Below are positions 1-63,132 of a DNA stretch of 64,000 nt, piece by piece. Made by a program: the position numbers and the translations under genes. Numbering within the stretch: the first letter of the stretch is position 1; every line of letters begins with the position of its first letter. Origin of the DNA: Manihot esculenta (taxonomy: Eukaryota; Streptophyta; Magnoliopsida; Malpighiales; Euphorbiaceae). The stretch lies in the NCBI RefSeq assembly GCF_001659605.2, contig NC_035174.2, positions 23,944,027 to 24,008,026 of the forward strand, read 5' to 3'. The notes beneath the pieces were generated by a model. The model saw nothing but the letters and a program-made list of their open reading frames with translations, was not told the origin of the DNA and made no database searches.

Positions 1-597
1 GTAGCCTATGGAGGATCTATCCTAGACAAGTCAACAAGGGAGATGAAAGAGTTGATATCTACTCTTACAGCCTCATCTAGGCAGTATGGAGAAGAGAGGC
101 AACTACAAAGGGCCAATGAGGTGAGTTTTCCCACTATTTCTGAACTAACATCTATTATGAAAAATATTGTCGTAGATGTTGTGCAACAAATTCAAGCACC
201 CCAGCCTCCTAGGCCATGTGGTATCTGTTCATATGTGGGACACCCCACTGATCAATGTCCTACCCTCCAAGAAGACAATCATCAAGTCAATGCAATTGGG
301 AGGTACAACAACCAGCCTAGATATGAACCATATTCCAATACATACAATCCAGGTTGGAGAGACCACCCCAATTTTAGCTATGGAAAGGCCAACAATGATC
401 AAAACTCCCAAAACTACCAAAGAAATCAAGCCCAACCAGCACCTTCAAGCTCCAATCCGAGCCTTGAAAAGATGATGGAGACACTGATAAGCACCATGCA
501 AGGCGTGCGACAAGACCTAGGACAAATGGCCACCTCTATAAGCCAACTGCAAACCCAAGGTAAACTCCCTTCTCAAACTAAAACTAACCCTAGATAG
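1..597 (+). pseudogene. gag: A1 gag, C-terminal part with zinc knuckle
   Basis: Nucleocapsid end of a Gag protein that would package element RNA in cytoplasmic virus-like particles. The frame is open from base 1. A CCHC knuckle (C-x2-C-x4-H-x4-C, beginning CGICSYVGH) starts at 217 and is followed by the NTYNPGWRDHPNFSYG stretch that also occurs in A2, A3 and C. A TAG at 595-597 replaces the glutamine or glutamate found there in relatives (CAG to TAG fits a C-to-T change), and the same frame continues beyond it. The Gag capsid domain lies to the left of the window. Confidence 0.88.
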
Positions 598-1905
598 AAT
601 GTGAGTGCCATCACTTTGAGAAGTGGAAAAGAACTTCAAGATGCAAGATATGAGGAAGAAAAGCAAGTTGCACCAAAGCCTGCGCCATCTGAGACGCCCT
701 CTGCACAAGAACCAAGGCAACCTGAAACCTCACCATCACCATCTGAACCACCTCTTGCACACAAAATTGATCCAAAAGTAAGCTTTCACAGTCCACCTCC
801 TTTTCCAAAAAGATTTGAAAGAACACAAAAAGAAAAAGAAGAAAAGGAGATCCTTGAGACTTTCAGAAAAGTGGAAATCAACATACCACTGCTAGATGTT
901 GTCAAGCAAATCCCAAGGTACGGAAAATTTCTGAAAGAGCTTTGTACCAATAGAAGAAAGCTTGCTGAAAGAGAAAAAGTAAGTGTAGGTGAGGTAGTTA
1001 CTGCTGTTATCAAAAGAGAACTCCCCACCAAATGCAAGGACAAAGGTATGTTTGCTATCTCTTGCAAAATTGGGAATGTTGGTATAAAGAAAGCCATGTG
1101 TGATCTTGGTGCATCCATTAATGTCATGCCTCTCTCCATCTATAAATCTCTCAATGCATGTGCACTTAAAGAAACAAGGGTTGTGATACAATTGGCTGAT
1201 AGATCTGTGGTATACCCCATAGGTGTTCTAGAAGATGTGTTAGTCCAAGTAGATGAGCTTGTCTTTCCTCCTGATTTTTATGTGATTGATACTAAGGAAG
1301 ATAGTTGCAATACTAGTTCTGACATTCTTCTTGGACGTCATTTCTTAAGTACTATTAGAACTAAAATCGATGTGCATGATGGTACTCTTACCATGGAATT
1401 TGAAGGAGAAGTCATTAAGTACAATGTCTATGATGCCATGAAATATCCACATGATATGTCCCCAGTTTATAGTCTCGATATTATTGATTGTTTAAGCCAA
1501 GATGTGTTTAATGAAAATCAAGATTGTATTTTGGAGGATGATCTTTGTAGGACTGAAAACCTGAAACTAAAAGAAACCATCTGCAACATTCAGCATATAG
1601 AGGTTGCACAGACAGAAGACATTCGGCCGCCGAACATAGCCCATCTTCGGCCGCCGAACCCTACTGCTCCTCAGAAACTCGATTCTGTTGTGCCACTTTT
1701 GCAACACATTGCGCAAAAAGAAGACGTCCTTCGGCCGCCGAACATCTTTCGGCCGCTGAACCCCACTGACTTACGGAAGCCAAATCCATCGCCATAGCTC
1801 GTTCTGCAAACTGAAGAAATTCGGCCGCCGAACTCAGACACTTTTCGGCCGTCGAACCTCTCACAACCGAATCCAACGCAAGCAAACTCTTCCATCCCAC
1901 CTCCT
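598..1905 (+). pseudogene. A1 protease region and RPPN-repeat linker
   Basis: In-frame continuation of the A1 polyprotein. It contains a retropepsin-like aspartic protease: the active-site DLGAS has its Asp codon at 1102-1104, and a DILLGR flap-side motif follows near 1321. The protease would cut the polyprotein. After it comes a low-complexity linker with repeated RPPN units (about 1620-1860), each encoded by the near-palindrome TTCGGCCGCCGAA. A TAG at 1795-1797 interrupts it; relatives have lysine there. Where the RT-type relatives continue into reverse transcriptase (LPDHLKY), this element switches after LPD to SEESKYDLLEQ and goes straight to integrase. Confidence 0.85.
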
Positions 1906-60640: not shown

Positions 60641-61549
60641 GCATGAAGATTACTCACCTCTTTTCATTGATTCCCTTTGCTTACCATGACTAGGATTTGT
60701 TTTCCTCAAGAGAGACATGCACATTAATTTGTTAAGACTTTTTCTAGCTTTTGGATTGACTTGGCCTTACCTTGAAGTACTTTATTCAGGCTTTTGCACT
60801 TTGGATTTTGCTTGGAAAGGTCACCAACCTATTTTTGATTTCATGGTTTATATTTTTCAGTTGGTCACCTATCCAAGTGGCTAGTAGCTCTTATTTTTGT
60901 GCTTTTGAGGTCTATGCCTTTGCTGAATTTTCTTTCTCTCAATGATTTGGGCAAATCAATACCAATTGCTAAATCAAGTCATTAAGTTCATTCACACAAC
61001 TTTAATTTATTCTCAATCAATTGAGGGTCATCAATATATTTTTCACCAATGGCAAGCTCTAAGATTCAATTCAAAAGGCAATTCTCAAACATGAATACAA
61101 TCAACTGCAATTGATTCAACATAAGTTTAAAGAGTTATCACATCAATGGGGTCATGGAAAGAAAAACTTATCTAACATAGTTCATAAGTTTGAGTAGAGC
61201 AAAACAAAAGAAGAAGAAGGTTGTTGTTGTGTGTGTTTTATTGAAAGCATAAACAAAATAACAAATTAAAATTCAACTGTGGCTAATTAACTAAAAGGAA
61301 TTTTAAAACTAAAAAGGAAAAGAAAAATTTTTTTTTGCAATCTGAAAGCATGAGAAAGTGTAGAAGAGGAGAAGGGAAGAGGAAGAGAGAAAAGAAAAGG
61401 GAGAAGAAGAAGGGAAGAAGAAGAAGAGAGAGAGATATGCACCCCCACACTTAAATCATGCATTGTCCTCAATGTAAAAGAGAAGAGAGAAAAAGAGAAC
61501 AAAGGAATTTGAATACTCCCCTGGGGTGTGGTGTGCATGGCATGATCCT
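60641..61549 (-). other. A4 3' untranslated region, main part
   Basis: Continues 51524-51662 after A3. It has a long purine-rich minus-complement stretch (plus-strand GA-rich, 61355-61435) and the inner AAGTGTGGGGGTGC motif near 61440-61455. Confidence 0.78.
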
Positions 61550-63132
61550 CTAGGCGGAGTGAGTGATGAACAGATGTTCGTCTGGGAACTCTTCTTTGAC
61601 TGGGCATGGCGCAGAGCTATAGGGAAGTCGGCTGAGGTGGTCTGCCATAAGATTCTCTTTGCCTTTCTTGTCTCTTATCTCAAGATCAAATTCTTGTAGA
61701 AGTAGAATGCACCTAATGAGCCTTGGTTTTGCTTCTTTTTTCTTGATCAAGTATCGCAGGGCTGTATGGTCAGAATAGACAATGACCTTGGTTCCCAATA
61801 GATATGGTCTGAATTTCTCCAAAGCAAATACAACTGCCAAGAGTTCTTTTTCAATTGTTGTGTAGTTGCCTTGTGTAGCATCAAGTGTGCGGGAAGCATA
61901 GTGAATGACATGGGGTGAGTTTCCTACACGTTGCCCCAAGACTGCTCCTAATGCATAATTGCTTGCATCACACATGATTTCAAATGGTAAGTTCCAGTCA
62001 GGTCCTTGAATAATTAGGGGAGTCACAAGCAATTCTTTAATTAAATTGAATGCCTTTTTGCAATCTGCATCAAAATCAAATGTTACATCCTGTTGGAGCA
62101 ATCTGCATAATGGCAAAGTGATTTTTGAGAAATCCTTGATGAATCTTCTATAGAATCCTGCATGGCCAAGGAATGATCGAATGTCTTTAACGTTTGTGGG
62201 GTAAGGCAGATTTTTTATGGTATCCACCTTAGCTTTGTCCACTTCAATACCCTTAGCTGAAACAACATGACCTAAGACCATAACTTGATTAACCATAAAA
62301 TGACATTTTTCATAATTAAGCACAAGGTTAGTCTCAATGCATCTTTGCAAGATCCTTTCTAAATTGGTAAGGCATTCATCAAAGGAATTTCCATGAACTG
62401 TGAAGTCATCCATAAATACCTCAATTGTCTTACCCATATAGTCAGAAAATATGCTCATCATGCACAGCTGAAAGGTGGCAGGTGCATTGCATAGTCCAAA
62501 GGGCATTCTCCTAAAGGCGAAAGTGCCAAAAGGGCAAGTGAAGGTAGTCTTTTCTTGATCTTCTGGAGCAACTGGAATCTGGTAGAACCCTGAATAACCA
62601 TCAAGACAACAATAGTGAGATTTACCTGCAAGCCTTTCCAGCATCTGATCAATGAAGGGAAGTGGGAAATGGTCCTTCCTTGTTGCAGCGTTGAGCTTTC
62701 TATAGTCCATGCATGCTCTCCATCCATTTTGAACTCTTGTGGGAACAAGTTCTCCTTCAGTATTTGGAACAATGATAATTCCAGTTTTCTTTGGAACTAC
62801 ATGTACAGGGCTCACCCATTTGCTATCAGAGATTGGGTATATGATGCCTGCATCAAGGACTTTGACTATCTCTTTTTTCACTACTTCCATCATAGGTGGA
62901 TTCAATCTTCTTTGAGCATCTCTGACTGGCTTGCATTCCTCCTCCATGTGAATTCTATGCATGCAGGTGGAGGGAGAGATACCTTTGATGTCATCAATGG
63001 TCCATCCTATGGCTTTTTTGTGTTTCTGTAGTACCTTCAAGAGGCTTGCTTCTTCTTGTTGGCTCAATTCATTGGACACTATTACTGGAAGTGTCTTGTT
63101 TGCTCCCAAGTACATGTATTTCAGATGGTCTA
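61550..63132 (-). pseudogene. A4 reverse transcriptase and RNase H, open but 5'-truncated
   Basis: Minus-strand frame of 521 residues from 63115, without a stop. Counting from there: the LPVIVSNELSQQEEASL linker, GWTIDDIKGISP near 37-48, LDGYSGFYQIP near 171-181, FMDD at 234-237, then the RNase H CDAS, EKELLAV, YSDHTAL and ADHLSRL motifs, ending PDEHLFITHSA-stop. All catalytic residues are present. Protease and gag are cut off by B4 at 63132. As in A2 and A3 no integrase follows. Confidence 0.92.

What the first reader, a model, noticed from the sequence alone, without database searches (positions are those of the whole stretch)
1..63132. Pol split between two complementary types of Athila-like element
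All six Athila-like elements lack part of pol, and the missing parts are complementary. A1 (1-4269) and C (40617-45725) encode Gag, protease and integrase but no RT or RNase H; the A0 fragment has the same linker before integrase. A2, A3 and A4 encode RT and RNase H but no integrase (A2 and A3 also Gag and protease). A1 shares LTR, primer-site region and 3' untranslated region with A2-A4, so their RNAs could be packaged and copied together. A2, A3 and C have their own TSDs, so these are replicating lineages and not one damaged copy. Inference: a bipartite retrotransposon with trans-complementing RT and integrase partners. Non-autonomous plant LTR elements are well known, for example BARE-2 using BARE-1 Gag; I do not know of a described reciprocal RT/integrase split.
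Basis: partly seen in the sequence, partly recalled or inferred. Interest (0 to 1): 0.92.

Follow-up and report, generated by a model that had tools for sequence, protein, structure and literature searches.

The report
Plant retrotransposon with split pol gene
In this plant DNA one family of jumping genes comes in two shortened forms, one keeping only the copying enzyme and the other only the inserting enzyme, and both halves look preserved by selection; whether the two forms really need each other is not yet shown.

Summary
Of six Athila-like copies, five can be judged: A1 and C carry protease and integrase (IN) but no RT-RNase H; A2, A3 and A4 carry RT-RNase H but no IN. Both losses are in frame. 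The three RT-type copies share one junction that keeps IN's last codons and stop; the IN-type copies share a spacer seen in none of 157 relatives' spacers read. IN is constrained between A1 and C (dS 1.18, dN/dS 0.055), and RT between A3 and A4 (0.11). Two signals suggest recombination between the types, hence shared particles, but neither is conclusive. These look like two old, semi-autonomous halves of one family that plausibly complement each other. A whole helper is not excluded: the host genome search did not complete, whole relatives are common in other plants, and in Rhodiola a PR-IN type is annotated beside whole copies. Partner-dependent Athila elements are known; a reciprocal RT/IN split did not appear in eight paper searches aimed at it. 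The nearest analogue is the proposed bipartite florendoviruses.

The parts
1..4269 (+). A1, IN type: end of gag, protease, linker, integrase, 3'UTR (5' part outside the window)
   Evidence: no Pfam hit in the gag piece, homology only; IN aligns with C over 430 codons without a gap, 4 in-frame stops, DDE kept
1939..1995 (+). A1 junction: IN-type spacer SEESKYDLLEQIFLAQSDE before PWYAD, in the place of RT and RNase H
1996..3288 (+). A1 integrase
4270..10126 (+). A1 3' LTR, interrupted by a Copia element at about 5183-9263
10127..10567 (-). A0 integrase fragment, second piece
49537..49752 (-). A0 integrase fragment, first piece with IN-type spacer (LYEQIF.AQTDE)
10568..14072 (-). A2 3' LTR pieces (10568-11192, 13353-14072), with a foreign insert between
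   Evidence: TSD TATCT
22988..24834 (-). A2: end of RNase H, RT-type junction, 3'UTR, start of 3' LTR
34530..38559 (-). A2: last part of its 5' LTR, PBS, gag, protease, RT, start of RNase H
47783..49536 (-). A2 5' LTR, cut by C
38560..47782 (+). C, IN type: complete element, LTRs 38560-40617 and 45726-47782 99.6% identical, TSD ACAGA
40648..42378 (+). C gag ORF (576 codons, stop to stop)
42255..44678 (+). C protease-integrase ORF (807 codons, stop to stop), no RT or RNase H; spacer 43329-43385, integrase from 43386
51663..60635 (-). A3, RT type: LTRs at 58793-60635 and 51663-53502, TSD TATAT, inserted in A4's 3'UTR
54489..55964 (-). A3 RT and RNase H ending in the RT-type junction DEHLFVTPSA-stop
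49753..51662 (-). A4 3' LTR and last 135 nt of 3'UTR
60636..63131 (-). A4, RT type: RT, RNase H, RT-type junction, most of 3'UTR; 5' part cut off at 63131

Best explanation
One Athila (Ty3/gypsy) family exists here as two semi-autonomous halves. The RT type makes Gag-PR-RT-RNase H and the IN type makes Gag-PR-IN. Both RNAs carry near-identical LTR ends and PPT, related 3'UTRs, and where visible the same kind of primer site. Inferred mechanism: both RNAs and both polyproteins go into mixed Gag particles; RT from one type copies both RNAs, IN from the other inserts both cDNAs, and template switching now and then exchanges LTRs between types. Shown: the architecture, shared in-frame junctions, TSDs, and constraint on each half. 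Favoured but not proven: recombination between IN-bearing and IN-less members. Inferred: that the partner, rather than only a whole helper, supplies the missing enzyme.
For: Domain content. Junctions: RT type ends DEHLF(V/I)T.SA-stop, retaining the last codons and stop of IN; IN type carries SEES..DL.EQ....Q.DEP before WYAD, where 156 of 157 relatives' RH-IN spacers have an FPDE-like block and 0 of 157 have SEES, L[YL]EQ or DEP. dN/dS: IN A1-C 0.055 (95% 0.034-0.081) at dS 1.18; IN A0-A1 dS 0.70; RT-RH A3-A4 about 0.11 (0.07-0.16). Relative rate: C's IN distance over A3's RT distance to the same 19 relatives has median 1.67; among 159 of the 171 pairs of these relatives it is 1.68 (5-95% 1.35-2.03). 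Recombination, line 1: A1's protease is close to the RT type (dS 0.27) and far from C (2.05), although A1 shares the IN-type spacer with C. Line 2: in the LTR, A1 and A4 are 94% alike and A4 and A2/A3 87-91%; with A1 as outgroup A2/A3 would have changed about 3-4 times faster than A4 (chi2 36-39 and 16-21). Activity is interleaved: C (IN type) sits in A2 (RT type).
Against: No genome-wide count, so a whole helper is not excluded. Whole elements are common in related plants, and in Rhodiola RT-less PR-IN models occur beside whole ones (3 against 38 of 54). No complete copy in the window is fully open. Rooted on C, A1+A4 as sisters is the best tree, but the tree with all RT types together is not rejected (AU p 0.083 for the LTR 3' half, 0.32 for the 3'UTR, 0.08 for both); the 3'UTR shows no rate difference (chi2 1.4-2.6). 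The IN donor could have been a whole element. A2-A3 RT dN/dS is higher (0.30-0.33, 95% 0.17-0.61), so much of the change between young copies may be decay. C belongs to a different LTR family (about 70% alike in the 3' half), and no RT-type copy with C's LTR is in the window. No expression or particle data.
Confidence: 0.42

Rival explanations
1. Both types are deletion derivatives mobilised by a whole autonomous Athila elsewhere in the genome. They keep gag, PR and half of pol because their own proteins are favoured in cis or raise particle yield (semi-autonomous elements, as proposed for wheat and Arabidopsis).
For: Whole relatives are widespread. Wheat, barley and Arabidopsis precedents. 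Rhodiola has RT-less PR-IN models beside whole ones. The RT type's terminal codons resemble A1's IN end, so it probably arose from a whole A-family element.
Against: No whole copy among five informative elements in the window. Strong constraint on IN in RT-less copies over dS of about 1.2 needs an added reason if a helper supplies everything.
Confidence: 0.45
2. A1 and C lost RT independently and recently from whole parents, so the constraint on IN is inherited from whole ancestors and says nothing about life without RT. (Overlaps with the first rival.)
For: C's left breakpoint cannot be placed exactly. A1's protease is close to the RT type (dS 0.27) and far from C (2.05), which needs no recombination if the losses were independent.
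Against: A1 and C (and A0 where visible) share a spacer seen in 0 of 157 relatives' spacers. The block of A1-C homology downstream starts at 1939, about where A1's homology to A2/A3 ends (1892-1910).
Confidence: 0.22
3. Ordinary decay: unrelated dead copies that happened to lose different parts, or assembly error.
For: A1, A2, A3 and C carry stops or a frame break, and the window is a nest of insertions.
Against: Identical in-frame junctions in 3 of 3 and a shared spacer in 2 of 2 copies, own TSDs, young LTRs, dN/dS well below 1.
Confidence: 0.03

Closest known systems
Bipartite endogenous florendoviruses (Caulimoviridae; PMC4241990, passages read)
   Same: Two components with complementary domains, one of them lacking RT, with very similar intergenic regions (over 90% identity); proposed to complement each other. 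The authors also could not discount a helper.
   Different: Pararetroviruses without integrase (recalled). Here an LTR retrotransposon is split between RT-RNase H and integrase, and integration leaves TSDs.
Non-autonomous Athila of Arabidopsis (Marco and Marin 2008, PMC2410132, passages read)
   Same: Athila families lacking pol, with intact ORFs under purifying selection, recombining with other Athila and possibly cooperating.
   Different: There pol is absent as a whole and gag/env are kept; here pol is divided between two types.
Semi-autonomous RLG_Sabrina and RLG_WHAM with RLG_Wilma in wheat (PMC9744471) and the barley survey (PMC5738225), passages read
   Same: Gag- or Gag-PR-encoding, partner-dependent elements of Athila affinity sharing LTR ends and PBS with an autonomous partner.
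   Different: They lack both RT and IN, and a whole partner is proposed.
RLG_Cereba / RLG_Quinta of einkorn wheat (PMC11302176, passages read)
   Same: Two element families treated as partners, one contributing Gag.
   Different: Cereba is fully autonomous; the dependence is one-way.
BARE-2 / BARE-1
   Same: A retrotransposon missing one protein uses that of a relative.
   Different: One-way loss of Gag only (recalled).

Membership tests
Athila lineage of Ty3/gypsy LTR retrotransposons | Polyprotein in Ty3/gypsy order related to Athila RT and IN | tested here: met
Athila lineage of Ty3/gypsy LTR retrotransposons | Long LTRs TG..CA, PBS TGGCGCCGTTGCCGGGG-like next to the 5' LTR, PPT, 5-bp TSD | tested here: met
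   LTR ends TGATAG/TGACAG..TGTCA, PBS in C, A2 and A3, PPT GTGGGGGT in A1, A2, A3 and C, TSDs of 5 bp in C, A2 and A3; that this PBS is typical of Athila is recalled
Athila lineage of Ty3/gypsy LTR retrotransposons | env-like ORF after pol (in some Athila) | tested here: not met
   No stop-to-stop ORF of 150 codons or more between pol and the 3' LTR in A1, A2, A3, A4 or C; env-less Athila exist
Autonomous LTR retrotransposon | Gag, PR, RT, RNase H and IN in one element | tested here: not met
Bipartite (reciprocally complementing) retroelement | Two components with complementary coding capacity and shared cis signals | tested here: met
Bipartite (reciprocally complementing) retroelement | Both halves functional under selection while apart | tested here: inconclusive
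   dN/dS low in both halves, but independent losses or past recombination with whole elements are not excluded
Bipartite (reciprocally complementing) retroelement | Components packaged together | tested here: inconclusive
   LTR distances and rate test favour exchange between A1 and A4 lineages, but the C-rooted AU test does not reject RT types together (p 0.08); the donor could have been a whole element
Bipartite (reciprocally complementing) retroelement | No whole copy needed in the host genome | not testable with these tools
   own-genome search did not complete
Gag-only TR-GAG or LARD type non-autonomous elements | No RT, RNase H or IN at all | tested here: not met
   Each type keeps half of pol

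The most novel reading that the evidence does not exclude
An obligately bipartite LTR retrotransposon: the host holds no working whole copy, and the family has persisted by co-packaging a Gag-PR-RT-RNase H RNA and a Gag-PR-IN RNA that supply each other, with the IN-type line older than the divergence of the A and C LTR families (IN dS about 1.2) and LTRs exchanged between the two.
Probability: 0.18. Interest if true: 0.9.

Novelty: new variant of a known kind. Interest (0 to 1): 0.6.

Why it matters
Retroviruses package two RNAs but are regarded as diploid, not segmented (passage). A lasting division of pol between two co-packaged RNAs would be a step towards a segmented retroelement. It would show that cooperation, not only parasitism, can maintain partial elements, and would give a directly countable test: class frequencies, age and selection in one genome. 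Even with a helper, it would document a pair of reciprocal semi-autonomous types that annotation by domains might call merely degenerate.

Tried and rejected
Relatives in viral contigs and genome contigs: no relative found, so no further loci. Candidates for the same PR-IN architecture (156 proteins: all 120 of the first hit list and 36, chosen by me, of the 114 new ones of the second): ten have PR and IN with little or no RT, all from the first list. Seven of these keep an RNase H tail, and P0060 is an abrupt join in a Malus gene model; I read these eight as gene-model splicing or deletion remnants. P0091 and P0093 of Rhodiola remain. With P0241 (a cluster of 15 sequences) they share one join different from A1/C, which would be an independent case, but only protein models were seen, no DNA.

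RT-type candidates elsewhere (for example P0136 of Sesamum, ending at the RH/IN boundary) were not verified. Assembly error and random decay were set aside because junctions are shared between copies. Absolute ages were left out, because any rate would be recalled. The A2-A4 value includes an untrimmed, unrelated N-terminal stretch; use for that pair. The alignment of the linker does not place C's left breakpoint.

I first took the four-copy site counts (A1+A4 against A2+A3: 61 to 4, 28 to 4, 33 to 3) as proof that A1 is A4's sister. They are unrooted and fit the tree with all RT types together as well, so I tested the root.

Paper searches: ten in all; eight were aimed at a split or partnership, at florendoviruses and at retroviral IN in trans. 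One search returned nothing, one unrelated paper and eight HIV or lentivirus listings, none opened. No listing showed a reciprocal RT/IN split. Passages were read in PMC5738225, PMC11302176, PMC2410132, PMC9744471, PMC4241990, PMC7076952, PMC4608283 and PMC3072357; no paper was read whole, and most subscription papers are absent from the library.
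Full report
WHAT IS THERE. Self-comparison, junction reading and TSD checks resolve the nest. C (38560-47782, + strand, LTRs 99.6% identical, TSD ACAGA) lies in the 5' LTR of A2. A2 (minus strand, 49536 down to 10568 in five pieces, TSD TATCT) lies in the integrase fragment A0. 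A3 (51663-60635, minus, TSD TATAT, LTRs 97.8% identical) lies in the 3'UTR of A4 (63131 down to 49753, 5' end cut off by another LTR). A1 (+ strand) runs in from the window's first base, already inside gag, and ends at about 10126 with a Copia element in its LTR. A0 is about 650 nt of IN between A1's and A4's 3' LTRs.

DOMAINS. Pfam scans of ten ORF pieces give gag in one C ORF and protease plus integrase in the other (807 codons), with no RT or RNase H; protease and the integrase zinc domain in A1's pieces; gag, protease, RT and the start of RNase H in A2; protease, RT and RNase H in A3; RT and RNase H in A4. Protease hits, and A1's zinc-domain hit, are just below Pfam's own cut-offs. A1's gag piece gave no hit and A3's gag was not scanned; both rest on homology. 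RT FMDD and RNase H motifs are present in A3 and A4, and the IN DDE residues in C and A1. No complete copy is fully open: A1, A2 and A3 carry in-frame stops, and in C the gag and PR-IN ORFs are in different frames.

JUNCTIONS. In A2, A3 and A4 RNase H runs into DEHLF(V/I)T.SA-stop and then the 3'UTR. A1's IN ends ..PSA-stop before the same 3'UTR, so IN was removed in frame up to its last codons and the stop was kept. In A1 homology to A2 stops about CTTCCAGA (LPD of the PR-RT linker), and downstream homology to C starts at once with SEES..DL.EQ....Q.DEP before WYAD. A1 and C have all three; A0, which begins later, has LYEQ and DE. The IN-type spacer thus looks like a shared derived mark of A1, C and probably A0, hence one loss of RT. 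C's left breakpoint cannot be placed, so two separate losses are not excluded.

SELECTION. IN A1-C: 426 codons, no gap, dS 1.18, dN 0.065, dN/dS 0.055 (bootstrap 0.034-0.081); A0-C dS 0.99 and A0-A1 dS 0.70, dN/dS about 0.08-0.09. RT-RNase H A3-A4: dS 0.31, dN/dS 0.11 (0.07-0.16); A2-A4 0.11; A2-A3 0.30-0.33 on few changes (0.17-0.61). Protease: A1-A3 dS 0.27, A1-C 2.05, A3-C 1.77, dN/dS 0.03-0.08. Against 19 relatives, chosen from 48 with complete RT and IN, the ratio of C-IN distance to A3-RT distance has median 1.67; among 159 of their 171 pairs (those with RT distance above 0.2) it is 1.68 (5-95% 1.35-2.03). RT and IN fall in the same larger clade (Hibiscus, Sesamum, Asteraceae, one unnamed contig), with different nearest neighbours; supports were not printed. 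Each half therefore seems to evolve like the same half of a whole element.

RECOMBINATION, two lines, each conditional. First, if the IN-type loss is a single old event, A1 (protease dS 0.27 to the RT type, 2.05 to C) must have taken its gag-PR and LTR side from the RT-type family, or given it. Second, LTR identity is 94% between A1 (IN type) and A4 (RT type) but 87-91% between A4 and A2/A3, although A4 shares the IN excision with A2 and A3. The four-copy sites (61 to 4, 28 to 4, 33 to 3) are unrooted and do not settle this. With A1 as outgroup, A2/A3 would have changed three to four times faster than A4 in the LTR (chi2 36-39 and 16-21), but not in the 3'UTR (1.4-2.6), where A1, A4 and A2/A3 are all 90-91% alike. 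Rooted on C, A1+A4 is the best tree, but RT types together is not rejected (AU p 0.083, 0.32 and, for both pieces, 0.08). So exchange between IN-bearing and IN-less elements, which for LTR retrotransposons means template switching in a shared particle (established knowledge), is favoured, not proven; the IN-bearing partner need not have been IN type.

RELATIVES. Protein searches (120 best of thousands listed each) find whole gag-pol relatives in many eudicots; the best match of C's IN is 72% (Ipomoea triloba) over its length and of A3's RT 80% (Centaurea). No close relative of the host was seen, so the host is unidentified. Of 156 proteins examined, 92 hold PR, RT, RNase H and IN together at the 60% coverage cut-off; ten hold PR and IN with little or no RT, of which seven keep an RNase H tail. 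In Rhodiola, 3 of 54 proteins examined are PR-IN and 38 hold RT, RNase H and IN; the three share one join, and one stands for 15 sequences. This suggests that RT-less PR-IN types can arise and multiply beside whole elements, but only gene models were seen.

WHAT IT MOST LIKELY IS. Two semi-autonomous halves of one Athila family with common cis signals. I give 0.42 to reciprocal complementation as the main supply and 0.45 to a whole helper with partial self-supply; the two can coexist. The missing datum is the genome-wide count: the own-genome search was unanswered at all 15 attempts.

KNOWN OR NEW. One-way partnerships and pol-less Athila under selection are published. Among the papers seen, a complementary two-component retroelement is proposed only for florendoviruses. 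Eight full-text searches of open-access papers aimed at it did not show a reciprocal RT/IN split; subscription papers were mostly not searchable. I rate it a new variant of a known kind, with a categorically new reading still open.

Noticed in passing
window 5183-9263: A young Copia element with repeats of at least 171 bp (99% alike) near its ends, in A1's LTR; its 1119-codon ORF has integrase and RT domains but no gag domain hit apart from gag_pre-integrs, and its leader holds a 29-bp tandem repeat. It looks like a partial element itself.
   Followed up: partly
window 14068-22987: LTR element with 2384-bp LTRs 99.8% identical; its only long sense ORF (16624-18153) has a CCHC zinc knuckle and no pol hit.
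   Followed up: partly
window 26102-33140: LTR element with 2317-bp LTRs 99.7% identical and a 2.4-kb interior without an ORF of 150 codons or more; its LTR is about 76% like part of that of the element at 14068.
   Followed up: no
proteins P0091, P0093, P0241 (Rhodiola kirilowii): Gene models joining protease directly to integrase with one shared join that differs from A1/C; one cluster stands for 15 sequences. Possibly an independent RT-less Athila type.
   Followed up: partly
protein P0136 (Sesamum indicum): Gag-pol model ending just before the integrase start; could be an IN-less type or a truncated model.
   Followed up: no
window 42255-42378: In the otherwise young C element the gag and PR-IN reading frames overlap in different frames, unlike the single frame of A2/A3.
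   Followed up: partly
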